Assembly (NCBI RefSeq): GCF_000969985.1
Contig: NZ_CP009526.1
Location: 1,922,001 to 1,986,000 of the forward strand
Reading direction: 5' to 3'
DNA length: 64,000 nt
Source of the DNA: Methanosarcina barkeri str. Wiesmoor
GTDB lineage: Archaea; Halobacteriota; Methanosarcinia; Methanosarcinales; Methanosarcinaceae
The position numbers and the translations under genes are program-made. This document shows, one piece after another, positions 4,217 through 34,746 of this stretch (within the stretch, counting starts at the first letter, position 1; each line of letters begins with the position of its first letter). The notes under the pieces are model-generated. The model was not told the DNA's origin. It made no database searches and was given only the letters and a program-made list of their open reading frames with translations.

Positions 4217-5737
4217 ATGCAATTGAAGTTAGAACATTTTAACATAAAAATAGGGCAGCACAAGATATTACTAAATATTGCCGATGCAAAGGAACTGGGG
4301 GTTAACCCAGGCGATAGGGTCCGTATTCGTGGGCGTGAAAGTATTTCTGCAATTGCGGATACAACGGATGATATGGTTCCTCCAGGCACGCTGGGCGTTT
4401 TTTCCGAGGTATATGAGCACTTTGTGAACTGGGATAAACCGGTCGAAGTTGTTCCGGCATTCCGTTCTAAATCCGCATCCGTGATCAAGAAAATGATGGA
4501 TAAAAAACCTGTTGTGCAGGAAGAAATTAAAACACTCGTAAACGATATAGTGGAAGAAAATCTCAGTGAAATCGAACTTTCGGCATTTATAACATCTTCT
4601 TATATTCACGGAATGACCGATGATGAGGTCGAATGGCTTACAAGAGCTATGATTGAGAGCGGAGACACGATTGAGTTTGACACTCATCCTATAATGGACA
4701 AACACTCGATAGGAGGAGTGCCCGGAAACAAGATCTCCCTCCTTGTTGTTCCTATTATCGCTGCAAACGGGCTTCTTATTCCGAAGACGAGTTCAAGGGC
4801 GATTACAGGGGCAGGTGGAACTGCTGACCTTATGGAAGTGCTCTGTCCGGTAGAGTTCAGTTCCCAAGAAGTCAAAGAGATAACTGAAAAAGTCGGGGGC
4901 GCTCTTGTCTGGGGCGGAGCCACAAATATAGCGCCTGCCGATGACAAGCTCATAAGGGTTGAATACCCTCTCTCCATTGATCCTTACTACCAGATGCTCG
5001 CCTCGATTATGGCAAAAAAAGGAGCTATCGGGGCCGACAATGTGGTAATGGACATTCCGGTTGGGCCGAGCACAAAAGTTCCAACTGTTCAGGAAGGGCA
5101 AAAACTTGCAAGAGACCTGATTAACCTTGGGCACAGGCTTGGAATGAACGTTGAATGTGCAATCACCTATGGTTCGTCTCCTATTGGAAGAAAAGTAGGA
5201 CCTTCACTGGAAGTCAGGGAAGCTCTGAAGGTACTGGAAAGTATGGAAGGTCCGAACAGCCTTATTGAAAAGAGTGCGGCTCTGGCAGGTATCCTGCTTG
5301 AGATGGGGGGTGCGGCTCCAAGGGACCGTGGAAAAGAGATTGCACTGGAAACACTAAGGAGCGGAAAAGCCCTTGAGAAGATGAAACAGATTATTGAAGC
5401 CCAGGGCGGTGATCCGAAGATTACCTCGGCTGACATCCAGGTAGGGCAATATACTGCCGATATTCTCGCTTCTGCGGACGGATATGTCATCGAGTTTGAC
5501 AATAAGTGGATAATTGAAATTGCCAGGCTGGCAGGAGCTCCTAATGATAAAGGAGCCGGGGTCGCTATTCACAAGAAAATGGGAGAATCCGTTAAGAAGG
5601 GAGATCCTATCCTTACGATCTATGCTGAAAAAGAGTTCAAACTAGAGACCGCATTGGCAACAGCCCAGAGAACAAACCCGATAGTTGTTGAGGGCATGCT
5701 TCTTAAGAGAATTCCCGGAACCTACGGGTTCCAGTAA
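4217..5737 (+). CDS. deoA: AMP phosphorylase (type III RuBisCO / NMP degradation pathway)
   Basis: Phosphorolysis of AMP (and CMP/UMP) to ribose-1,5-bisphosphate plus base; the product is isomerised to ribulose-1,5-bisphosphate for type III RuBisCO. The 506-aa length matches the archaeal family, which has an extra ~80-residue N-terminal domain relative to thymidine phosphorylase. The phosphorylase signature DKHSIGGVPGNK and the glycine-rich SRAITGAGGTADLME are intact, followed by the C-terminal barrel-sandwich region (GVAIHKKMGESVKKGDPI). An aaggag Shine-Dalgarno lies just upstream of ATG 4217. trm56 follows 58 bp downstream in the same direction. The partner isomerase and RuBisCO are not in this window. 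Confidence 0.95.
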   Translation: MQLKLEHFNIKIGQHKILLNIADAKELGVNPGDRVRIRGRESISAIADTTDDMVPPGTLGVFSEVYEHFVNWDKPVEVVPAFRSKSASVIKKMMDKKPVVQEEIKTLVNDIVEENLSEIELSAFITSSYIHGMTDDEVEWLTRAMIESGDTIEFDTHPIMDKHSIGGVPGNKISLLVVPIIAANGLLIPKTSSRAITGAGGTADLMEVLCPVEFSSQEVKEITEKVGGALVWGGATNIAPADDKLIRVEYPLSIDPYYQMLASIMAKKGAIGADNVVMDIPVGPSTKVPTVQEGQKLARDLINLGHRLGMNVECAITYGSSPIGRKVGPSLEVREALKVLESMEGPNSLIEKSAALAGILLEMGGAAPRDRGKEIALETLRSGKALEKMKQIIEAQGGDPKITSADIQVGQYTADILASADGYVIEFDNKWIIEIARLAGAPNDKGAGVAIHKKMGESVKKGDPILTIYAEKEFKLETALATAQRTNPIVVEGMLLKRIPGTYGFQ

Positions 5738-5795
5738 TCTTCTCTTCTTTTTTTCAGTGAAATACTTTAATACCTTGCAGGGTTTTAGCACGAGC

Positions 5796-6329
5796 ATGAA
5801 AAGAATTGTTTTGCTGCGTCTGGGGCATCGCCCTGAGAGGGATAAAAGAATCACAACCCATGTGGGCTTAACCGCCCGGTTGCTCGGTGCAGAAGGTATG
5901 CTCCTCGCCTCAAATGACCCCGGAATAATAGCAACTCTTGAGGATGTTGTCAGCCGTTGGGGCGGAAATTTCTATATTAAGAATAATGTCAATTATAAGC
6001 AGGAAATCAAGGAATGGAAAGCTGCCGGTGGAAAAGTCTGCCATCTTTCAATGTATGGGATCAATCTGCCCGATGTCACGGACGAGCTTAAAAGCTGTGA
6101 TAAGCTTATGATTGTGGTAGGAGCAGAAAAGGTACCTCCGGAAATTTATCAGCTTGCAGACTGGAATGTTGCAGTTGGAAGCCAGCCCCATTCCGAGGTT
6201 GCAGCGGTTGCAATTACTCTGGACAGGATTGCAGACGGCGAGCCACTTAAAAGAGAATTCCAAAATGCTGAGCTGACAATTGTACCAGCAGAAAGGGGTA
6301 AGCAGGTTATAGAAAATCTTAGGGATTAA
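5796..6329 (+). CDS. tRNA (cytidine(56)-2'-O)-methyltransferase
   Basis: Archaeal Trm56-type SPOUT methyltransferase that 2'-O-methylates C56 in the tRNA T-loop. The start chosen is the ATG at 5796, giving MKRIVLLRLGHRPERDKRIT, the family N-terminus; the frame is open further upstream but that part overlaps the spacer after deoA and is not family-like. Further motifs: TTHVGLTARLLGAEGM, VVGAEKVPPEIYQLADWNVA and the knot-region GSQPHSEVAAVAITLDRI. Length 177 aa is normal. It may be co-transcribed with AMP phosphorylase, although a T-rich stretch at 5741-5755 could terminate between them. Confidence 0.92.
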   Translation: MKRIVLLRLGHRPERDKRITTHVGLTARLLGAEGMLLASNDPGIIATLEDVVSRWGGNFYIKNNVNYKQEIKEWKAAGGKVCHLSMYGINLPDVTDELKSCDKLMIVVGAEKVPPEIYQLADWNVAVGSQPHSEVAAVAITLDRIADGEPLKREFQNAELTIVPAERGKQVIENLRD

Positions 6330-6508
6330 GTCTATCCCCCTTAACTTTTCTTCATAATCTTTGTTTTCTATTTTTCAGGACTTTTGCTTTTTCCCTTTAA
6401 TTTTTCTCCATAGCCTTTGTTTTCTATTTTTCAGAATCTTTTACTTTTTTGAGTATCTTGTACCTTTTTGGCTTGAGTTTTTATATTTAGATTTCATCTT
6501 TTTATGTT

Positions 6509-7969
6509 TTAATGAAGGTTCTTATCTTCATAAAGAATCTTCAGGAGCTCAATAATCGAATATGCAGCCCGTGTAATTCCCATGCTGCGCTTGTCAGTAT
6601 CGGTGCCAGCTACATAGAGGTTCCGAACAGGAGTTCGAATCTCTGCAAACTTTCCATTAATTGCGACCGCAGCCTTTTCTGGAATCATTGTTTGTTCGTG
6701 CTGCATATCTATATATTTCTCGATGTTTGGATGGGCACGGAAAATCGTATCATAGGCCTTTTTTGTCTCCTGTTCTTCACTTTTACTTTCATTGATCACA
6801 AAGGAAAAGCCTATAAGCTGCTTATCCTTTGGAGCAAGTGATTGATCGTAATTGCTTATAGGAGATGCCCAGTAGGCGAAATCCTTGAACCAGATCTCTG
6901 AGCCTGTGTAATTAAAATTGGGAAACTCTTTTTCCAGCCCAAGCCAGATGGTCAAGCTTTTACTATGGACAATTCCCTTGAGGTCTTTAACATACTCTGT
7001 AGGAAGATCTTTTATAAGCCTGGGAAGCTCGGTTGCAAAACCCGTGTAGATAACAAGGTCAGAGATATAAATTTCATCGGCTTCCACACCTGAAACCTTT
7101 CCGTCCTGTATAAGAATGGATTTAACTTCACATTCCGTTTTGATCTCAACAGTTTCGGGCAGGGAATAAAGGATGGCGTTGAGCAGGGCTTTTAACCCCT
7201 TTCTGGGATAACCCTGAGAGTCGTTCAAATCATTTGTTGCAAGTCTTTCCAGAGATGTAAACGGCTGAGTAACCCTGGTCATTCTTGCTTGAAGAGAAGC
7301 ATGGAGATGATACGGAAGGATTGAGGCAAGGATAGATTCTGTAGACTGGGGTTTTTTCGGTTCCAGTTTCCCTATCATGGCATCAAACTGTTCCTGGGTA
7401 ATGCTATCCCTGACAAAATTGCTGCCGTACAGGATACGCTGAGCTGAGGTTTCTTTCATAGGTTTCCCAGAAAGGGAAATGGATATTGTGTCCACAAAAT
7501 CGTAGGTATCCTTTGAAAGACTTTTTGGCAGAAACTCATACACTGCCCGATCTGAAAGGTCTATGCCAAATGAGGAAAGAGTAAAAGCTTTAGTGAGAGT
7601 CTGAGAGAGTATAAGCCTGTCTTTTCTTGGAAGTACTTCAAAAGTCACGAAGTCTTTTAGGGTTGAAGGAACTTTGACAAAAGCGTTTTCAGTCCGAATG
7701 TAGTAATGCCCATAGTCCTCAAATACAGGCAAAAAATCAAAGTAGTTATCCATCAACCTCTTCAGAGGTCCTTCAATCAGATGGGTAATCGCGTGTACTC
7801 CTGTATCGACCTGATAGCCATCTACCATGTAACTATTGCAATTTCCTCCAATATGCTGATTTTTTTCAAGAACAAGGACTTTTTTTCCGTGTTTAGAAAG
7901 CGTTAAAGCTGCTAAAAGCCCACTTATGCCTGCCCCGACAACAACTACGTCATACTTTTTCATTTTCAA
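6509..7969 (-). CDS. FAD-dependent oxidoreductase, phytoene desaturase (CrtI)-like
   Basis: Amine-oxidase/CrtI superfamily flavoprotein of 486 aa. The N-terminal Rossmann dinucleotide site is textbook (DVVVVGAGISGLLAALTLSK, then VLVLEKNQHIGGN). The C-terminal FAD-binding segment (IRTPVRNLYVAGTDTDKRSM, followed by GITRAAYS) is also present. Such proteins act in carotenoid, prenyl-lipid or quinone-like desaturation/saturation; the substrate cannot be read from sequence. No prenyl synthase gene sits next to it here. The start is Met1 or Met3 (MKMKKYD). Downstream (6330-6508) is T-rich, consistent with a terminator on either strand. Confidence 0.85.
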   Translation of the reverse strand: MKMKKYDVVVVGAGISGLLAALTLSKHGKKVLVLEKNQHIGGNCNSYMVDGYQVDTGVHAITHLIEGPLKRLMDNYFDFLPVFEDYGHYYIRTENAFVKVPSTLKDFVTFEVLPRKDRLILSQTLTKAFTLSSFGIDLSDRAVYEFLPKSLSKDTYDFVDTISISLSGKPMKETSAQRILYGSNFVRDSITQEQFDAMIGKLEPKKPQSTESILASILPYHLHASLQARMTRVTQPFTSLERLATNDLNDSQGYPRKGLKALLNAILYSLPETVEIKTECEVKSILIQDGKVSGVEADEIYISDLVIYTGFATELPRLIKDLPTEYVKDLKGIVHSKSLTIWLGLEKEFPNFNYTGSEIWFKDFAYWASPISNYDQSLAPKDKQLIGFSFVINESKSEEQETKKAYDTIFRAHPNIEKYIDMQHEQTMIPEKAAVAINGKFAEIRTPVRNLYVAGTDTDKRSMGITRAAYSIIELLKILYEDKNLH

Positions 7970-24483: not shown

Positions 24484-24711
24484 AAAACCGATTTTATTAA
24501 TAGCTCCTAAAGCACGGTAAGCACAGAAGCTTCTGTGCCCGTCTTTATTTTTGCCTACGTTTTCAGTCTTTTGTATGGTCAATATTATCTTGTGAACTTT
24601 TTTATCTTGTGAACGTTTCTATCTTGTGAACGTTTCTCGTGTCCGTTTTTATGTGAAAATGTTATCTGTTTTATAGAGTCTGCTCTAATTGCTGGTTGCT
24701 GACAGATTGAA

Positions 24712-24793
24712 AGAGAGATTGAAAAGCAGATTGAAAAGCAGATTGAAAAGCAGATTGAAAAGCAGATTGAAAAGCAGATTGAAAAGCAGATTG
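24712..24793. repeat. 12-bp tandem repeat, target of the composite element
   Basis: Seven or so near-perfect copies of a 12-nt unit (gaaaagcagatt) downstream of the thermosome gene. The array stops at 24793 where the IS1-like end begins, and its phase resumes after the other IS copy at 33176 (gcagattgaaaag). It was therefore split by the 8.4-kb insertion. The spacer 24484-24711 holds no gene, only repeated cttgtgaacgttt stretches. Confidence 0.85.
24786..24793. repeat. Left 8-bp target site duplication of composite element
   Basis: GCAGATTG immediately before the left IS end. The same octamer follows the right IS end at 33176-33183. Removing one copy restores the 12-bp array phase exactly. 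The length agrees with IS1-family target duplications (8-10 bp). Confidence 0.8.
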
Positions 24794-25527
24794 GGTATTG
24801 TTAACTAATTATAGCGATTTCTTTATTTCTATGTTTCATCAATAGAAGAACAGAGTACTTTAGCATTTCAATACTCTTCGTATAACATTTTGTCTTTCGT
24901 CTTAACCTTGCCAGAAAGTGCCTCAATATGCCATTATATCCTTCAACTGTATACGTTTTTTGGATTGAGTATGAATATTTTCTGGAAGAAACTCTGCATA
25001 TGCTCTCCAGTGATCTGTCATCACTTCTCCAATCTCTTTCTGCTTTAATTTTTCCCATATTAGTTGTCCAGTTTCCGTTCCTCTGTTGCCAAAAGAGCAG
25101 TGGATGAATTTTCCCAACTCTATCAACAGCAATCCAGATCCAGCAATATTTTTTTTGTTACCGATGTAAGTGTGCATCTCATCCATTTCAACAATAGATA
25201 TCTCATTTTCGCTTTTTAGGTCCTCCAACTCCTGACCAAATTTCTTTATCCATTTTTGGACAGAAACATGACTTACTCCTAAAAATCTTCCTATTGAGCG
25301 AAATCCTAACCCTTCAAGATAGAGTTGCAAAGCCTGTCTCTTAACAGAAGGGGAGATAGAAGTTGATTTTACCTCTACGGTATAGTTATATCCACAATCA
25401 TGGCATTTGTAGCGTTGACGTCCAAAAACTATACCATTCTTTTTGTGAGTGGAACTATTACACCTTGGGCAGTTCATATAGAAATATAGGTTCTCATAAT
25501 ATATATCTATAGTTAACTACCAAAGCC
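24794..25527 (-). mobile_element. IS1-family element, copy 1
   Basis: About 734 bp, delimited by comparison with copy 2. The imperfect terminal inverted repeats begin GGtattg on the left and GGctttgg on the complement of the right end; the terminal 21 nt match at 14 positions. It contains one transposase gene in reverse orientation, interrupted by a frameshift. Confidence 0.85.
24801..25477 (-). pseudogene. IS1-family transposase, frameshifted (copy 1)
   Basis: Single-frame archaeal IS1 transposase. N-terminal zinc finger (NCPRCNSSTHKKNG ... CHDCG), then a helix-turn-helix (YLEGLGFRSIGRFLGVSHVS) and a DDE catalytic core with D in VEMDEMHTYIG, D in MTDHWRAYAEF and E in YTVEGYNGILRHF. Relative to copy 2, a cggc tetranucleotide is missing near 24957-24961. 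The frame shifts after ENIHTQSK and the catalytic E lies in another frame (24801-25058). The intact protein would be about 232 aa. Programmed frameshifting is conceivable for IS1 relatives but does not explain a 4-nt difference between copies. Confidence 0.85.
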
Positions 25528-26724: not shown

Positions 26725-26922
26725 TTACACACCTTTATATTCAAACCCTATGCAATCGAGATACAATAACGTATCGCTCTGAACACTAACGTATGGAATC
26801 CCTGATAACACTTTCTTTTCAAATCCAGAAGTTACGACATGATATCCGTTCCTAGTTTCTCTAACGTGGAATACCCTTGCAGTATAGCCTTTACTCTCAA
26901 AATTTAAATTTACAAAACTCAT
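26725..26922 (-). CDS. Hypothetical protein, second gene of CCA operon (65 aa)
   Basis: MSFVNLNFESKGYTARVFHV... ending DCIGFEYKGV. The ATG at 26922 overlaps the TAA of the nucleotidyltransferase gene by one base (TAATG), so I prefer it to the longer open frame reaching 27096. Beta-rich, no membrane segment, no known domain seen. Tight overlap implies translational coupling with the CCA-adding enzyme. Confidence 0.55.
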   Translation of the reverse strand: MSFVNLNFESKGYTARVFHVRETRNGYHVVTSGFEKKVLSGIPYVSVQSDTLLYLDCIGFEYKGV

Positions 26923-28136
26923 TATATCATCTCTACTCTTTTCTGATGTAATACCTTTCCGAAAGCTTCGCCTTTTGGAGTTGTGGCGGGCAAATCGTCT
27001 CCAGAAATAGAGTAAATCTTCGCGTAAGTTGCATGCATTAAAGCAATGTCCCTCATTGTGCCAGGAGTAGGTTTGTCTGCATATAAGACTTTGCAAAAAC
27101 CCTCTAATCCTCTGTTAGACTTATGTATTCTTTCAAGTAGTGATACTCTCTTACCTCTCCTCATTTCTCTGAATCTGTGCCCCCTCATGTGGTCGGCTGC
27201 AAAGACCTTAGCAAAATATTTCCATTCATTTGGAACCCAATCTATTTTATCAATAATCTCCACGCTTCTTGTTTCATGGTCGTGGTGTGCTGGTAAAATT
27301 TCTGTCGGGGTTGTAGCTTTGCCTAAATCATGGGTGAGTGCCGCGAATAAGCAAACCGGATCATCGGTTAATTCTCGACAATCATCAAGCACTCTCATAG
27401 TATGCTCAAAAGCGTCTCCATCGCTATGATGAGCTTGTGGGATTCCTATCAATGAATATATTTCAGGAAATGTAATGTATAGAGCGTGCCCCAAATTTAA
27501 AATGTTAAAATATCTAGATGGTTTTGGAGATGAAAATACCTTTTTTAGTTCGGAAAATTTGTGGTCATCAGATATCAATTTAATTTCATGTACCAGATCT
27601 AACATATACATAATCAACGTTGGTGATGCTCTGAACGTGGGATATTCACACATAAATCTCGCCGCCCTAATAACTCTTACCGGGTCTTCTTTGAATGCGT
27701 CTGATGTTGGAGTTATTATCCCATTTATAAGATCCTCTGCCCCGTTGAACGGATCTACAATCATACCTGTAATTACGTCTATTGCAATTGAATTGATTGT
27801 CAGATCTCTTCTACAAAGATCTTCTTCAATTGTTACAGACGGATCTGAATTAATTTCAAATCCGTTATATCCTGCGCACACCTTTTTTTCAGTACGTGCC
27901 ATAGCAAACTCACAATCGTCTACCACAAAAACAGGAAACTGGTTCCCCTGTTGGCGTGCATCTGGAAACAAGTCTTTAAACGTATCTACTGTCAATCCAC
28001 ATACACAAAAATCAACGTCATGGGGAGTTTGGCACATTAAAAAGCGGCGTACTGCTCCACCTACTATGTATAATGTACCACCTGCATCTTTTATTTTAAG
28101 TGCGTGTGGTCTGAATTTAGTTAATATTTTGTTCAA
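26922..28136 (-). CDS. Class II (bacterial-type) CCA-adding enzyme / polynucleotide nucleotidyltransferase with HD domain
   Basis: 404 aa. Nucleotidyltransferase head: GGAVRR at 26-31 with the metal-binding D40/D42 (HDVDFCV), then the neck motif RRDLTINSIAIDVITG at 109-124 with DPFNGAEDLINGI, and DPVRVIRAARF. A C-terminal HD phosphohydrolase domain follows (H245, HD at 269-270 in ALTHDLGK). By family it adds or repairs the tRNA 3' CCA, or polyadenylates RNA. Archaea normally use the unrelated class I CCA enzyme, so this copy was probably acquired from bacteria or a virus. It heads a three-gene operon with overlapping stops and starts. RNA specificity cannot be read from sequence. Confidence 0.88.
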   Translation of the reverse strand: MNKILTKFRPHALKIKDAGGTLYIVGGAVRRFLMCQTPHDVDFCVCGLTVDTFKDLFPDARQQGNQFPVFVVDDCEFAMARTEKKVCAGYNGFEINSDPSVTIEEDLCRRDLTINSIAIDVITGMIVDPFNGAEDLINGIITPTSDAFKEDPVRVIRAARFMCEYPTFRASPTLIMYMLDLVHEIKLISDDHKFSELKKVFSSPKPSRYFNILNLGHALYITFPEIYSLIGIPQAHHSDGDAFEHTMRVLDDCRELTDDPVCLFAALTHDLGKATTPTEILPAHHDHETRSVEIIDKIDWVPNEWKYFAKVFAADHMRGHRFREMRRGKRVSLLERIHKSNRGLEGFCKVLYADKPTPGTMRDIALMHATYAKIYSISGDDLPATTPKGEAFGKVLHQKRVEMI

Positions 28137-29508: not shown

Positions 29509-29570
29509 TATTTTGACTTTTGTCCGTTATCCATAGATTTACATGCCTTCTGAGATTTTTTGCAACGGAA
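29509..29570 (-). repeat. 62-bp inverted repeat, left arm, of the RiPP-cassette bracket
   Basis: Near-perfect inverted copy of 32340-32403 (one 2-nt indel). On the minus strand it encodes SVAKNLRRHVNLWITDKSQN in an open frame, so both arms are remnants of one repeated protein-coding element lying in opposite orientations. Confidence 0.75.
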
Positions 29571-29590
29571 CCGATGTTTCTTTATTAATT

Positions 29591-29719
29591 GAGCCTATCC
29601 CAAAACTTATTTTATTCTAAATCATCATGAGTTTTCAGGATCATTTTAGTGATTAAGAATTCAATTGATCGTCCCAATACGAGATTCAAAAATCAAATTT
29701 TGAGTGTCGGGATAGGCTC
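29591..29719. mobile_element. MITE-like element, copy A (129 bp)
   Basis: Terminal inverted repeats GAGCCTATCCC..., flanked by ATT on both sides (possible 3-bp target duplication). No coding capacity. Related in ends and size to the element at 35490-35620. The ends resemble IS5/IS1031-type termini, so it is probably mobilised by such a transposase encoded elsewhere. It overlaps none of the radical SAM coding region and may supply its terminator. Confidence 0.7.
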
Positions 29720-29727
29720 ATTATTAA

Positions 29728-31107
29728 TCATGGATGAGAAAAATTGTTCTGTTCATCATCGATACCAATTCCTCCTATTTCATTACCACCTAAATTTTGT
29801 GTTAGCATCAAAAGTTGAGAATAACCATTGGCAATTGAATTTAAATCTAAATAACGCGTTGTGAGGATAGGAGTTCCGAGGTTGTACTCTTCGGTATCAT
29901 TTGTAAGTAGTTTTATTCCAAGTTTTTCCCTTTGATCCATAAAGCGGGTTCCTGGGAATAACGTTAGCAATGAAGGGATTATCTTCTCCGCACCAATTTC
30001 ATATAACCTTCTTATGAAATTGAACGTCTCCTGAAGTGTTTTTTCTGTTTCGTTAGGATGAGGGAAAACCATGCTTAAAACTGGACTAATCCCTGCTTCT
30101 CGAGACCATATAACGGCATTTTCTATTTGCTTTAAAGTAATTTTTTTGCCAAGCTGATCTAGTAGCTGTTGTGATCCTGACTCCATGCCAAATTGGATAG
30201 TTGTACAACCAGCACTCCTCATGTCTTGCAGTATTTCTGGAGTAACGGCATCAGCACGGGATTCGCAGGTCCACTTAAGATTTCGGGTAATTGATGGAGG
30301 AATTTTTATTTGGCGAAGCCCATCGCAGATATCCATCAAACGCTGTGTATCGTGAGTCATGGTATCATCAACAAAATAAAAAGATGTTATACGGAATTTA
30401 TCTATGCACATTTGCACTTCTGCAATTACATTTTTTGCGCTACGTGCAATATATTTCCTTTCCATTACCACCGGACCAGCACAAAAACCGCAGTTTGAGG
30501 GGCAACCACGACTTGTAAGGATGGTACCTGGTATGTTATAAAGATGTAGAGGCATTAAGTGCCTAGCAGGAAATGGTAATGCATCTAAATTGATTATTCT
30601 TGCTCTTCTTGGCAGAGTTATTATCTCATCTTTAGAACGTACAGCTGTACCTTCAATGTTGAGTGGGAGCTTATTTTCTTTTGCTGCAGCACGGCACAAC
30701 TCTAGAAAAGTAATTTCACCTTCGCCTCGGACTACAATATCTACAAAAGGATAATTTAATGCTTCGTGATAATTAACAGTTACATGTGGCCCACCAAGGC
30801 AGACTATACACGTTGGTAGAAAGTGTTTTACTGTTTTTGCAACTCGCAAGCCGTTTTTAAATGTCAATGTTGTGGTTGAAATTCCCACAACAATGGGAGA
30901 GAACGATTCGAGAATCTGCTGGAGTTCTCTAACATTAACATCTTCAACGTCCATATCTGAAATACGTACTTCAAAACCATCATTTAGCAAAAAAGATGCA
31001 ATATAGCCAAGACCTAGAGGAGGAATTGCAGATGGCTTGGCTACGATACGGTTTTGTGGTCCTGGAGTTGGCGCCTGCAACAATAGAATATGATTTCGAT
31101 CAATCAT
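29728..31107 (-). CDS. B12-binding-domain radical SAM enzyme of putative RiPP cassette
   Basis: 459 aa. Residues 1-140 form a cobalamin-binding domain: PPLGLGYIASFL at 29-40, CLGGPHVTVNYHE at 103-115, IVVRGEGEITFLEL at 124-137. The radical SAM core follows, with the 4Fe-4S motif C202-x3-C206-x2-C209 (SRGCPSNCGFC) and later TTIQFGMESGSQQLL. Cobalamin-dependent radical SAM enzymes typically methylate unactivated carbons; other reactions are known. The ATG at 31107 overlaps the upstream PqqD-like gene by 8 bp, so the two are translationally coupled. That coupling implies action on a peptide presented by the PqqD-like protein. Substrate inferred, not shown. Confidence 0.9.
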   Translation of the reverse strand: MIDRNHILLLQAPTPGPQNRIVAKPSAIPPLGLGYIASFLLNDGFEVRISDMDVEDVNVRELQQILESFSPIVVGISTTTLTFKNGLRVAKTVKHFLPTCIVCLGGPHVTVNYHEALNYPFVDIVVRGEGEITFLELCRAAAKENKLPLNIEGTAVRSKDEIITLPRRARIINLDALPFPARHLMPLHLYNIPGTILTSRGCPSNCGFCAGPVVMERKYIARSAKNVIAEVQMCIDKFRITSFYFVDDTMTHDTQRLMDICDGLRQIKIPPSITRNLKWTCESRADAVTPEILQDMRSAGCTTIQFGMESGSQQLLDQLGKKITLKQIENAVIWSREAGISPVLSMVFPHPNETEKTLQETFNFIRRLYEIGAEKIIPSLLTLFPGTRFMDQREKLGIKLLTNDTEEYNLGTPILTTRYLDLNSIANGYSQLLMLTQNLGGNEIGGIGIDDEQNNFSHP

Positions 31108-31435
31108 CTAATTGAACCTCCTCAAAAAGGGGACGTGAAAGCCATGCAGCTAAACCTATTTTTTCAAGCTGCATTATATAACTGATTGTGTCTTCAAGAA
31201 CTTTACTTTCGTTAACTGGAGCATATTCCCTACATAATTGTTCTACCAACTCTAGAATTGTTCTGCTTCCATCCATTAGTTGCCAGATCCGCAAGGCTGT
31301 TTCCTCAAAGCATACAAGAAACTTATAACCACATACATATATTTCATCATCTTTATATATGTCTCCTAGCCAGCATTCATTTGTACGCCTAGGCACTTTT
31401 TTGAGGAAATTCTCATATTTCTGTGACAACAACAT
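31100..31435 (-). CDS. PqqD-like protein (RiPP recognition element)
   Basis: 111 aa. The central block GYKFLVCFEETALRIWQLMD, followed by GSRTILELVEQLCREY and a helix (KVLEDTISYIMQLEKIGLA), matches the PqqD winged-helix pattern: hydrophobic strand, W/L-x-x-L-x-G-x-x-T and a final helix. PqqD-like domains bind leader peptides and deliver them to a radical SAM maturase. It lies between the Val-rich protein gene (10 bp upstream) and the radical SAM gene (8-bp overlap). No catalytic residues are expected. Confidence 0.85.
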   Translation of the reverse strand: MLLSQKYENFLKKVPRRTNECWLGDIYKDDEIYVCGYKFLVCFEETALRIWQLMDGSRTILELVEQLCREYAPVNESKVLEDTISYIMQLEKIGLAAWLSRPLFEEVQLDD

Positions 31436-31445
31436 CTTAAAGCCT

Positions 31446-31904
31446 TCAAACTAGGAGTTTTTCAACTCTTTCCATCCGACTCATCATATCGCCAGTAGCC
31501 TTTTCATCAAGCCCTAATGTTTCTTTGATTAATTCCGGTTCTTTCTGCACCGTGAGAATAGCATTGTGAAGTGTCTCTCTTTCTACAGGGTTGTAAACAT
31601 CTAGTAACTTTGCTCTAATTATTTCGTCGCTAGCAACACTTGGGCGAGCAGCCACTGCAACACAGACAACCACTACAACTACTGCAACTGCTGCATTTGC
31701 TCGTTCACCGCCATTACCTATATATTCAAAATCTTCCACAGCATTTATTTTGCCTAAAGCAGGTAATTTTCCGAGTTTAGGAAAATCAGATGTTACTCGT
31801 AGTAAATCTTCGTGCCCTGTCAGAATTCTATACAATGGCTCATTCCATTTATCTACTTTTGTTTTAATTTCTAAATTATGAGAATATTTATCAAGTTTTC
31901 CCAT
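31446..31904 (-). CDS. Val-rich protein, candidate RiPP precursor (152 aa)
   Basis: First gene of the cassette. ATG 31904 (MGKLDKYSHN) is chosen; the frame is open to a TTG at 31937. Residues 1-64 form a charged, mostly helical possible leader. NGG (64-66) and ERAN are followed by an extraordinary segment AVAVVVVVVCVAVAA (72-86) with a single Cys81. RPSVASDE and a ~60-residue helical C-terminal region (NPVERETLHNAILTVQKEPE) follow. With a PqqD-like and a B12 radical SAM gene directly downstream, the Val stretch is a plausible modification target. A simple transmembrane helix is the competing explanation. No homologue recognised. Confidence 0.65.
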   Translation of the reverse strand: MGKLDKYSHNLEIKTKVDKWNEPLYRILTGHEDLLRVTSDFPKLGKLPALGKINAVEDFEYIGNGGERANAAVAVVVVVVCVAVAARPSVASDEIIRAKLLDVYNPVERETLHNAILTVQKEPELIKETLGLDEKATGDMMSRMERVEKLLV

Positions 31905-32039
31905 TAATATCATTCCCGCAACTAAATATATCTTCAAATAATTAATAGTCCATTCTATACTATGGTTAATACTTTTCCAAATAGTTTAAAACATCTTCAA
32001 ATATATTTTTAAAATGATAGTTTTATGAAGAGATTAATT

Positions 32040-32435
32040 CAAATTGTTAACCATTTAACAGAACAGTTGAACATTATAACTTTTATCACATAAAAAAGTT
32101 TCTATTTTACAAAGTGAATATTTAATTAATATAATTTTTGGTCGTCCAGTGTTACATGGTTGATATTACCATGGTTAAATATTCAGTACGACAAATAATT
32201 GCGTTTTTATGCAAGGGATGAAAGTCAGCCACAGTTACACTGAGGTTCGTAACAAAAAGGATCTGAAAACTACTTTATGAGCATTTGAGAATAATATCAA
32301 CCAGATAATAGAGGATGACCTAATTTTTACTAAAAATGATTCCGTTGCAAAAAATCTCAGAATAGGCATGTAAATCTATGGATAACGGACAAAAGTCAAA
32401 ATAACAGTTGCTGGTTCGGTAAAGTAGCTGTCACG
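32040..32435 (+). pseudogene. Decayed repeated gene ending at IS copy 2
   Basis: Plus-strand frames read RNKKDLKTTL, stop, AFENNINQIIEDDLIFTKND, then SVAKNLR with a 2-nt insertion, then the block NLWITDKSQN partly out of frame, and CWFGKVAVTN up to the IS junction. This is clearly a once-coding sequence now broken by a stop and a frameshift. The same protein block occurs inverted at 29509-29570. Family not recognised (possibly transposon-encoded). The spacer 31938-32040 shows nothing else. Confidence 0.6.
32340..32403 (+). repeat. 62-bp inverted repeat, right arm
   Basis: Inverted partner of 29509-29570, identical apart from a 2-nt insertion. The two arms bracket the three-gene RiPP-like cassette and the MITE, a 2.9-kb segment nested within the composite element. 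Confidence 0.75.
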
Positions 32436-33175
32436 AATATTGTTAACTAATTATAGCGATCTCTTTATTTCTGTGTTTCATCAATAGAAGAACAGAGTAC
32501 TTTAGCATTTCAATACTCTTCGTATAACATTTTGTCTTTCGTCTCAACCTTGCCAGAAAGTGCCTCAATATGCCATTAAATCCTTCAACTGTATACGTTT
32601 CGGCTTTGGATTGAATATGAATATTTTCTGGAAGAAACTCTGCATATGCTCTCCAGTGATCTGTCATCACTTCTCCAATCTCTTTCTGCTTTAATTTTTC
32701 CCATATTAGTTGTCCAGTTTCCGTTCCTCTGTTCCCAAAAGAGCAGTTGATGAATTTTTTCCCAACTCTATCAACAGCAATCCAGATCCAGCAATATTTT
32801 TTTTGTTACCGATGTAAGTGTGCATCTCATCCATTTCAACAATAGATATCTCATTTTCACTTTTTAGGTCCTCTAACTCCTGACCAAATTTCTTTATCCA
32901 TTTTTGGACAGAAACATGACTTACCCCTAAAAATCGTCCTATTGAGCGAAATCCTAACCCTTCAAGATAGAGTTGCAAAGCCTGTCTCTTAACAGAAGGG
33001 GAGATAGAAGTTGATTTTACCTCTACGGTATAGTTATATCCACAATCATGGCATTTGTAGCGTTGACGTCCAAAAACTATACCATTCTTTTTGTGAGTGG
33101 AACTATTACATCTTGGGCAGTTCATATAGAAATATAGGTTCTCATAATATATAACTATAGTTAACTACCAAAGCC
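32436..33175 (-). mobile_element. IS1-family element, copy 2
   Basis: About 740 bp and nearly identical to copy 1, in the same orientation. Its inner left end reads aatattg where copy 1 has ggtattg, so the GG terminus is altered on the inner side; the outer right end (complement GGctttgg) is intact and abuts the octamer GCAGATTG. Confidence 0.85.
32443..33125 (-). pseudogene. IS1-family transposase, frameshifted (copy 2)
   Basis: Same protein as copy 1. Here the C-terminal part is continuous (TDHWRAYAEFLPENIHIQSK through AETYTVEGFNGILRHF). A run of six T instead of four at about 32755-32760 shifts the frame after LLLIELGK, separating the zinc-finger/HTH/first-Asp part (32706-33125) from the rest. 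The two copies carry different lesions, so recombination between them could restore an intact gene. Confidence 0.85.
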
Positions 33176-33188: not shown

Positions 33189-34046
33189 TCATGTTTCTCC
33201 GTAAAACTGCAGGTAATCTTCCATTGCCTTCTTCGCCTGAGCAGGATACTCTTTTTTCATATATTCAATGAATTCGTCCCTTGATTGAATTTCCTTTAGA
33301 ACTTCAAGCATGTGGGCGGCAAATTTTCTTGATTCCACACTTCCTTTTCGAAGTTCAAAAGAAAGGCAGAGGGCCTCTTTAGGAAAATACTTTCTTCTAA
33401 CCCAGGGAGAGACCGAACCAAGTAGTACTCCTTCTTTGAGGATGCTGTAAGCAGGCACTCCTATGAGTTCAAGCCTGTTCTTTCCGGCCAGTTTATCTAT
33501 ATTTTCACCGGAATAGGAGTGAAGCTCAATGTAAATTTCAGGCTTTAATTCTTCAATCGCCCTGATGATCTTTTTTCCAGTTTCGGGGTAGTAATGCGGG
33601 TTAAGGGTTGAAATGTACTTTCCGCAGTCTACAAGTGGAATCAGAGCCAGAGAACCAGTTTCAGGAGGTTTGATTCTCTTCAGGAGGCCAGTTGTGTCTT
33701 TCCATTCATCTCCATGAAGGCCTGCAACAAAGAGCCGAACCGGTTTCCCATGACCGTAAATTCTCATTCTGGCATCAGGATACGAATCTGATCGCATTTC
33801 TGTGCATTCGTGCTTGCCGAAAAAAGAATCCTCTGAGTTCTCTTTTCCGTTGGGGTTCCCTTTTCCTTTAGAATTCCCTATTGTTTCAGAACTCTTTATT
33901 GATTTACAATTCTCTGTTGCTTCAGAATTCTTTATTGATTTACAATTCTCTGTTGCTTCAGAATTCTTTATTGCTTCAGAATTCTCTATTCCGCCTGAAT
34001 TCTCTATTCTGTCAGTATTCATCTGTTTTGAGGCCTCAAAACTCAT
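33189..34046 (-). CDS. DUF2119-like putative metallo-carboxypeptidase/deacylase-fold protein
   Basis: Start placed at the ATG at 34046 (MSFEASKQMN), overlapping the methyltransferase stop by 11 bp; the frame is open further upstream but that part lies inside the neighbour. Residues ~10-70 are a low-complexity linker of repeated (A/S)I(K/E)NSEATEN units encoded by ~30-bp tandem DNA repeats. The folded part begins RMRIYGHGKPVRLFVAGLHG, with a HGDEW motif, then PLVDCGKYISTLNPHYYPET and EIYIELHSYSG. The H-x-x-E and later H suggest a zinc-carboxypeptidase/aspartoacylase-like site (inference). I associate it with the methanogen DUF2119 family; function unknown. Confidence 0.7.
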   Translation of the reverse strand: MSFEASKQMNTDRIENSGGIENSEAIKNSEATENCKSIKNSEATENCKSIKSSETIGNSKGKGNPNGKENSEDSFFGKHECTEMRSDSYPDARMRIYGHGKPVRLFVAGLHGDEWKDTTGLLKRIKPPETGSLALIPLVDCGKYISTLNPHYYPETGKKIIRAIEELKPEIYIELHSYSGENIDKLAGKNRLELIGVPAYSILKEGVLLGSVSPWVRRKYFPKEALCLSFELRKGSVESRKFAAHMLEVLKEIQSRDEFIEYMKKEYPAQAKKAMEDYLQFYGET

Positions 34047-34746
34047 TTTTTTCGGGCTGATCTTCTGTAAGCGATTCTTTCTCTTCGGGAAGGGGTTTTC
34101 TTGTGACCACATAAATTTCCTGTTTTTTGGGATTAATAACCTGCTGAATTTCAAGTCCAAGGTTCTCGATTTTACTCAGGATCGGTTTTGGGTTCTTCTT
34201 TTTCGGAATTTTGATAACCTGAAGCAGCTTTCCCCCAGGTTTCAGCAGAGGCAGCACTCTCGAAAGAGCCTTGATTGAGTCCTCAGGTTCGAGGGTCATA
34301 TCCGAAAGAATCACATCCACGGGCTCGTCTGAGAGCAAATTCAGGGGTATGGTGAAGACATCTCCGAATATTACCTCAACATTTTCCTTTTCGTATGCAA
34401 TTTTTCCAAGTTCGCTTCTGAAGTCCTTGCTGAACTCTATGCCTTTTATATGGCCTACAATTTCCGAGGCAAAAAGAAGAAAGCCGCCTGCACTGGAGCC
34501 AAGGTCAAGCACTTCATCTCCAGGCTTAAGAATCCCGCTTTCTTCCTGAATAAGCTTAAGTTTGAAATAGCCCTGAGGCTGATCCAGGCCCTCAGTAACC
34601 TCGATTATATCATCAGTAGACACGTCTCGGGAGGCCTTTGTTATCACCGCGCCGTTTACCTTAACATTTCCGGCAAGGATAGCCTTCTTGGCTCGACCCC
34701 TTGACTTGAAATGGCCCATATCTACAATGTACGCATCCAGTCTCAT
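34036..34746 (-). CDS. S4-domain FtsJ-like (TlyA-type) RNA methyltransferase
   Basis: 236 aa. An N-terminal S4 RNA-binding domain (MRLDAYIVDMGHFKSRGRAK ... KVNGAVITKASRDVSTDD) is fused to a Rossmann SAM-dependent methyltransferase (DEVLDLGSSAGGFLLFASE, then VDVILSDMTLEPEDS and KPGGKLLQVIKIP). The DLGSSAGGF and K-D-K-like residues fit 2'-O-methyltransferases of the FtsJ/TlyA group, acting on rRNA or tRNA. The C-terminus is acidic and overlaps the start of the DUF2119-like gene, so the two are translationally coupled. The exact RNA target is unknown. Confidence 0.85.
   Translation of the reverse strand: MRLDAYIVDMGHFKSRGRAKKAILAGNVKVNGAVITKASRDVSTDDIIEVTEGLDQPQGYFKLKLIQEESGILKPGDEVLDLGSSAGGFLLFASEIVGHIKGIEFSKDFRSELGKIAYEKENVEVIFGDVFTIPLNLLSDEPVDVILSDMTLEPEDSIKALSRVLPLLKPGGKLLQVIKIPKKKNPKPILSKIENLGLEIQQVINPKKQEIYVVTRKPLPEEKESLTEDQPEKNEF

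What the first reader, a model, noticed from the sequence alone, without database searches (positions are those of the whole stretch)
29728..31937. Putative archaeal RiPP pathway: Val-rich precursor, PqqD-like protein, B12 radical SAM enzyme
Seen: three minus-strand genes in order, with 10-bp spacing and an 8-bp overlap. They are a 152-aa protein with AVAVVVVVVCVAVAA after an NGG, a PqqD-like domain, and a B12-binding-domain radical SAM enzyme with CxxxCxxC. Known: PqqD-like domains present leader peptides to radical SAM maturases, and cobalamin-dependent radical SAM enzymes methylate unactivated carbons, as in polytheonamide-type proteusins, whose cores are rich in Val. Inference: the Val-rich segment is C-methylated or otherwise modified; the single Cys may be crosslinked. 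The precursor is unlike families I recognise: the hydrophobic run is internal, with a 60-residue follower, and no protease or exporter is adjacent.
Basis: partly seen in the sequence, partly recalled or inferred. Interest (0 to 1): 0.85.

Follow-up and report, generated by a model that had tools for sequence, protein, structure and literature searches.

The report
Valine-rich peptide with radical modifying enzyme
A three-gene mobile cassette in a methane-producing archaeon appears to make a valine-rich small protein, hold it with a docking protein and chemically modify it with a vitamin-B12 radical enzyme, and two distant relatives, one on a bacterial-virus contig, show that the three genes form a real, previously unlisted peptide-modification system.

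Summary
Three minus-strand genes sit in tandem: a 152-aa protein with AAVAVVVVVVCVAVAA, a discrete PqqD domain, and a B12-binding radical SAM enzyme with CxxxCxxC. Spacing is 10 bp, overlap 8 bp. The precursor matches no family library. Searching with the enzymes found two distant copies of the whole trio. One is in another archaeal family (rSAM 43% identical, precursor gene moved behind the enzymes). The other is at the end of a prophage-like contig, probably bacterial (rSAM about 68%). Both carry a short protein with an Ala/Val run and the same C-terminal follower. So precursor and enzymes co-occur in 3 of 3 cases; no copy was found without them. The leader has a [WY]xxPL motif resembling PqqD-bound leaders; the follower is the best-conserved part. 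Only the composition of the core is conserved: the Cys and the GG are not. Best reading: an RRE-dependent RiPP whose Val/Ala run is modified, most likely C-methylated, by the rSAM. It is not a proteusin by the tests made. The trio lies in an 8.7-kb IS-bracketed insertion absent from a close relative. Chemistry, cleavage, export and biological role are not shown.

The parts
31446..31904 (-). Precursor protein (152 aa): leader 1-70, Val/Ala core 71-86, helical follower about 90-152
   Evidence: no match in Pfam, NCBIfam, PHROGs
31647..31694 (-). Val/Ala core AAVAVVVVVVCVAVAA (residues 71-86)
   Evidence: sequence and codon reading
31821..31850 (-). Leader motif KWNEPLYRIL, residues 19-28 of the 152-aa form; probable PqqD-docking segment
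   Evidence: shared with L041 (EWKQPLLRIL) and L035 (EYVKPLAGML); also seen in Cys-rich precursors beside PqqD/SPASM rSAM in L125 and L128. Role inferred.
31449..31637 (-). Conserved follower (about 63 aa, predicted helical)
   Evidence: 41% identity to L041 follower, E 2.6e-14; HMM of these two ranks the L035 precursor first of 238 ORFs, E 3.5e-4; predicted helices, pLDDT about 80
31100..31435 (-). Discrete PqqD-like RiPP recognition protein (111 aa)
   Evidence: PF05402 E 1.4e-10; 51% identical to L041, about 30% to L035
29728..31107 (-). B12-binding-domain radical SAM enzyme (459 aa), Cx3Cx2C at C202/C206/C209
24484..33176 (.). 8.7-kb IS-bracketed insertion that holds the trio; absent in a close relative
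   Evidence: In L096 (G152) the flanking bases are 154 bp apart; G+C 35% against 45-49% for the two neighbouring genes measured
24796..25484 (.). IS1-like element, copy 1
32438..33131 (.). IS1-like element, copy 2 (97% identical; its transposase reading frame is split)
29509..29570 (.). Inverted-repeat arm on one side of the trio
   Evidence: 89-100% complementary to 32340-32403 (bases read)
32340..32403 (.). Inverted-repeat arm on the other side of the trio

Best explanation
A mobile, RRE-dependent RiPP cassette. The precursor is made with an N-terminal leader, an internal 13-25 residue Ala/Val run and a folded helical follower. The discrete PqqD protein binds the leader at a [WY]xxPL segment (possibly also the follower) and brings the chain to the B12-rSAM enzyme. 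That enzyme cleaves SAM to a 5'-deoxyadenosyl radical, takes a hydrogen from an unactivated side-chain carbon in the Val/Ala run and, most likely, transfers a methyl group from methylcobalamin; several residues may be modified in turn. A host protease would then release a very hydrophobic peptide. Shown here: the trio, its co-conservation in three distant settings, the follower homology, the conserved core composition, and the mobile setting. Inferred: binding, the site and type of chemistry, cleavage, export, and the product's role. My estimates: RiPP-type modification of this precursor about 0.85; Val/Ala run as the site about 0.7; C-methylation as the chemistry about 0.5.
For: Trio in tandem. 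Full trio also in L035 (PqqD 9527-9180, rSAM 9183-7798, precursor 7826-7503) and L041 (precursor 5260-5652, PqqD 5649-6002, rSAM 5986-7323); the different gene order in L035 argues for functional linkage rather than one inherited block. rSAM 43% and about 68% identical. Follower-only similarity: 41%, E 2.6e-14 (window/L041), and first of 238 ORFs for L035, E 3.5e-4, with the low-complexity core left out. Leader similarity window/L041 E 1.3e-4. A leader model built only from unrelated Cys-rich PqqD-associated precursors ranks the Val-rich precursor first of 794 window ORFs and first of 174 in L088, though single E-values (0.57, 0.078) are weak and L035 is not found. Discrete PqqD-like proteins bind leaders and scaffold enzymes (RRE-Finder paper PMC7470986). 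B12-rSAM relatives by sequence include the MCR glutamine C-methylase model TIGR04014 (96 bits) and its structure 9ccb, a protein C-methylase of methanogens. PoyC, another B12-rSAM, methylates Val C-beta on a peptide (review PMC5682303).
Against: Only three members are known. B12-rSAMs also do non-methylating chemistry (ortho-tyrosine cross-linking in the pbs cluster, PMC12257519; OxsB ring contraction). The best model scores are to HpnJ and BchE, not to peptide methylases, and every curated cut-off is missed. No peptidase or transporter is adjacent in any of the three. The follower is better conserved than the leader, which a simple leader-driven RiPP would not predict. The 13-16 residue runs could simply be membrane or protein-core segments.
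Confidence: 0.72

Rival explanations
1. The trio is an RRE-dependent radical SAM system, but the enzyme does something other than methylate: C-C cross-linking, desaturation, cyclopropane formation or epimerisation of Val/Ala residues, or modification of a leader/follower residue, with the Val run serving only as a hydrophobic guide.
For: B12-rSAM enzymes in RiPP clusters can cross-link. A different radical SAM enzyme, TvgB, turns Val into cyclopropylglycine (PMC9062424). The closest curated models are HpnJ and BchE and the best structural matches include AprD4 and OxsB, none of them peptide methylases.
Against: The conserved item in the precursor apart from leader and follower is Val/Ala composition, with no conserved aromatic, Cys or polar residue in the run to cross-link. 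Protein C-methylase MgmA is among the nearest solved relatives.
Confidence: 0.33
2. The 152-aa protein is an ordinary single-pass membrane protein or small folded protein, and its position beside PqqD and rSAM is accidental; the pair acts on something else.
For: The run is hydrophobic and predicted as one helix of 19 residues (low confidence). No adjacent exporter or peptidase.
Against: All three homologues found are next to the same pair, with the gene order changed once. No copy without the pair in 186 genomes of the order, the plasmid set or the viral contigs. Run length varies from about 13 to 25 and is broken by QP in L041, unusual for one membrane span. Leader motif resembles PqqD-bound leaders.
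Confidence: 0.1
3. A decayed or silent cassette carried by insertion elements, without function in this host.
For: Lies in an IS-bracketed insertion seen in one of 31 genomes of the genus; a MITE-like repeat of about 40 copies abuts the rSAM stop codon.
Against: All three reading frames are intact and the catalytic cysteines are present.
Confidence: 0.15

Closest known systems
Proteusins (polytheonamide pathway, PoyB/PoyC)
   Same: Val-rich core; B12-dependent radical SAM enzyme; reported Val C-beta methylation on peptide (PMC5682303)
   Different: No proteusin-type leader match, Cx3Cx2C not Cx7Cx2C, discrete PqqD rather than the C-terminally fused RRE reported for proteusins (PMC7470986), long conserved follower, no epimerase beside it
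MgmA/TIGR04014, methyl-coenzyme M reductase glutamine C-methyltransferase
   Same: B12-rSAM of methanogens that methylates a protein carbon; second-best PDB sequence match (9ccb, E 1.8e-17)
   Different: Substrate is McrA, no PqqD or dedicated precursor; window enzyme scores 96 bits against a cut-off of 360
Lasso-peptide precursors and their discrete RRE (B1)
   Same: Discrete PqqD-like protein; leader motif YxxPxL (PMC10368454) resembles WNEPLY, WKQPLL, YVKPLA
   Different: No leader peptidase or asparagine-synthetase-like cyclase; radical SAM enzyme instead; much longer precursor with follower
TvgA/TvgB (poly-cyclopropylglycine RiPP)
   Same: Radical SAM enzyme modifying repeated Val residues of a precursor (PMC9062424)
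   Different: TvgB was picked from rSAM subfamily IPR023867 and the paper's text does not mention cobalamin; TVGG repeats; no Val run
pbs/biphenomycin-type B12-rSAM RiPP clusters
   Same: RRE protein and B12-rSAM acting on a ribosomal peptide (PMC12257519)
   Different: Aromatic core, MNIO and arginase partners; cross-linking chemistry

Membership tests
RRE-dependent RiPP gene cluster | Dedicated precursor gene beside the modifying genes | tested here: met
   Three of three trios carry an Ala/Val-run precursor with a homologous follower
RRE-dependent RiPP gene cluster | RiPP recognition element (PqqD-like) | tested here: met
   PF05402 above cut-off in all three
RRE-dependent RiPP gene cluster | Enzyme able to modify peptide side chains | tested here: inconclusive
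   B12-binding plus Radical_SAM domains and Cx3Cx2C are present; activity on a peptide was not tested
RRE-dependent RiPP gene cluster | Precursor is actually modified and a core released | not testable with these tools
   Needs expression and mass spectrometry
Cobalamin-dependent radical SAM superfamily | N-terminal B12-binding domain and radical SAM core | tested here: met
   PF02310 and PF04055 above cut-off; model aligns with TsrM, OxsB, MgmA, AprD4 at Z 15-16, but rmsd 6-7 and low-confidence model
PoyB/PoyC-type RiPP C-methyltransferase (TIGR03975) | Score above the curated cut-off | tested here: not met
   108.9 bits against 281.85
PoyB/PoyC-type RiPP C-methyltransferase (TIGR03975) | Cx7Cx2C cluster motif | tested here: not met
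   Cx3Cx2C; motif of PoyB/PoyC from PMC5682303
Proteusin | Nitrile-hydratase-like or Nif11-like leader | tested here: not met
   No match of the window precursor to any Pfam or NCBIfam model
Proteusin | Val-rich core modified by B12-rSAM | tested here: inconclusive
   Val-rich core and B12-rSAM present; modification not tested
Lasso peptide | Leader peptidase B2 and lasso cyclase | tested here: not met
   None among the genes of the insertion

The most novel reading that the evidence does not exclude
A new RiPP class, shared by archaea and bacteria and moved by mobile elements, in which a protein-sized precursor with a folded conserved follower presents an internal Ala/Val run to a PqqD plus B12-rSAM pair that modifies several unactivated aliphatic side chains in turn, giving an extremely hydrophobic, probably membrane-active peptide made by a methanogen.
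Probability: 0.35. Interest if true: 0.8.

Novelty: new variant of a known kind. Interest (0 to 1): 0.62.

Why it matters
In the open-access literature searched, RiPP work on archaea was sparse and nothing on radical-SAM RiPPs of methanogens turned up. A compact three-gene cassette that may functionalise plain Val/Ala side chains would be a tractable test case for protein C-methylation chemistry, for how a PqqD protein handles a precursor with a large conserved follower, and for exchange of peptide systems between methanogens and anaerobic bacteria. The three homologues give directly testable substrate-enzyme pairs.

Tried and rejected
Plasmid and phage rSAM hits (Rhizobium, Solidesulfovibrio, Sinorhizobium, Burkholderia, Mesorhizobium) have no PqqD or Val-rich gene that matched ours. 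About 30 of the best-scoring rSAM relatives in the phylum likewise lack the other two genes. Forty discrete-PqqD loci of the phylum have no Val-rich precursor and no close B12-rSAM beside the PqqD. Fold search of the precursor model gave no significant match (best E 0.25). The two-sequence rSAM model is poor (mean pLDDT 57), so its active site was not interpreted. Paper searches for a Val-rich/PqqD/B12-rSAM family found none, but only open-licence papers are held. Rejected: slippage artefact (mixed codons); Cys-crosslink and GG-cleavage as general features (not conserved).

Full report
Observation. The precursor begins at ATG 31904 (152 aa; the ORF list extends it to a TTG at 31937) and stops at 31446; PqqD is 31435-31100; the rSAM is 31107-29728. 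The gap is 10 bp and the overlap 8 bp. Pfam assigns PqqD, Radical_SAM and B12-binding above their cut-offs and nothing to the precursor; NCBIfam and PHROGs also have nothing for it. The Val/Ala run is written with mixed synonymous codons and so is held at protein level.

Setting. The genome is a 4.9-Mb member of a genus with 31 species genomes here; I infer Methanosarcina from gene content and relatives (not named by the tool). The trio lies in an insertion: in relative G152 the bases matching window 24483 and 33176 are only 154 bp apart. The insertion is bracketed by two IS1-like copies, 97% identical over 681 bases, and its G+C is 35% against 45-49% for the two neighbouring genes measured. 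Inside it the trio is again flanked by a pair of about 60-base inverted repeats (29509-29570, 32340-32403), and a 140-base repeat with about 40 genomic copies abuts the rSAM stop. None of the other 185 genomes of the order has the precursor by direct search. So the cassette was very probably acquired.

Family. Precursor searches failed, but searching for PqqD domains in the order and then matching the rSAM found L035, in a different family of the same order (I infer Methanoperedenaceae). It has PqqD, an rSAM 43% identical and, overlapping the end of the rSAM gene, a 107-aa ORF with PAAVAVAVAIVIVLW followed by a tail like ours. A viral-contig scan with the two rSAMs found L041/L088, with precursor, PqqD and rSAM in the same order as the window and an rSAM about 68% identical. 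That contig carries terminase-, portal- and amidase-like genes (named from my reading of the translations) and an integrase fragment (Pfam Phage_integrase) just before the trio, so it is the edge of a prophage or the host DNA next to it; I infer an anaerobic Firmicute-like host from gene style only.

Is the precursor homology real? With the low-complexity core removed, the followers of window and L041 match at 41%, E 2.6e-14, the leaders at E 1.3e-4; an HMM of those two followers ranks the L035 protein first of 238 ORFs at E 3.5e-4. The core keeps only its composition: AAVAVVVVVVCVAVAA, IPVAVVAVAVSVAIAV(QPAVVAAA), AAVAVAVAIVIV. The Cys and the NGG are not conserved. Conservation is thus follower first, leader second, core by composition.

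Leader. The three leaders share [WY]xxPL: KWNEPLYRIL, EWKQPLLRIL, EYVKPLAGML. While screening 40 discrete-PqqD loci of the phylum I found short Cys-rich ORFs beside PqqD and SPASM-like rSAM genes with the same start: TWTEPLLTIL, AWNKPVLTVL, LWNKPVLTVL, TWKRPVLTIL (L128, L125). A model from those four ranks our precursor first of 794 window ORFs and first of 174 in L088, but with weak E-values and not in L035, and the comparison was made after seeing the likeness; it is suggestive only. Lasso precursors read by discrete PqqD-like proteins have YxxPxL (PMC10368454).

Mechanism. Discrete PqqD-like proteins bind leaders and recruit enzymes (PMC7470986). B12-rSAMs move a methyl from SAM through cobalamin to unactivated carbon; PoyC does so on a peptide Val (PMC5682303) and MgmA on a protein Gln (9ccb). 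By sequence the window enzyme sits between several such groups and passes no curated cut-off. C-methylation of the Val/Ala run is the likeliest single chemistry, but cross-linking (PMC12257519) or other radical chemistry is open. Binding, chemistry, cleavage and export are all untested, and no peptidase or exporter is adjacent in any of the three loci.

Structure. The precursor model from three sequences (mean pLDDT 65.6) shows the run as one helix and the follower as a small helical bundle with pLDDT near 80; no solved structure resembles it significantly. The rSAM model is low confidence, and its matches only confirm the superfamily.

Verdict. A real, co-conserved, mobile RiPP-type trio with an undescribed precursor family; a new variant of a known kind. 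The proteusin membership tests made were not met, but the likeness in working (Val run plus B12-rSAM) stands as an analogy.

Noticed in passing
L125 4083-5408 (minus) and L128 4096-4281 (minus): Short Cys-rich ORFs with a shared W..P[LV]LT[IV]L leader beside PqqD and SPASM-like radical SAM genes in other archaea of the phylum; no Pfam or NCBIfam match. Look like another unlisted archaeal RiPP precursor family.
   Followed up: partly
29584-29728: About 140-base repeat with terminal GAGCCTATCCC, roughly 40 copies in the genome (MITE-like), directly against the rSAM stop codon.
   Followed up: partly
29509-29570 and 32340-32403: Inverted pair of about 60-base arms that frame exactly the trio; a third, weaker copy elsewhere in the genome.
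   Followed up: partly
26922-28136 (minus): PolyA_pol head plus HD-domain protein (CCA-adding or poly(A) polymerase type) inside the acquired insertion.
   Followed up: no
24691-24805: 12-base tandem repeat (CAGATTGAAAAG) beside the first IS copy.
   Followed up: no
52516, 56168, 63104: Three tRNA-Leu genes with the same TAA anticodon within about 11 kb, all minus strand, amid large secreted repeat proteins.
   Followed up: no
33871-34060: Internal repeats (IENSEAIKNSEATENCKS) near the N-terminus of the 323-aa ORF at 33189-34160; the stretch gives several overlapping matches in relatives.
   Followed up: no
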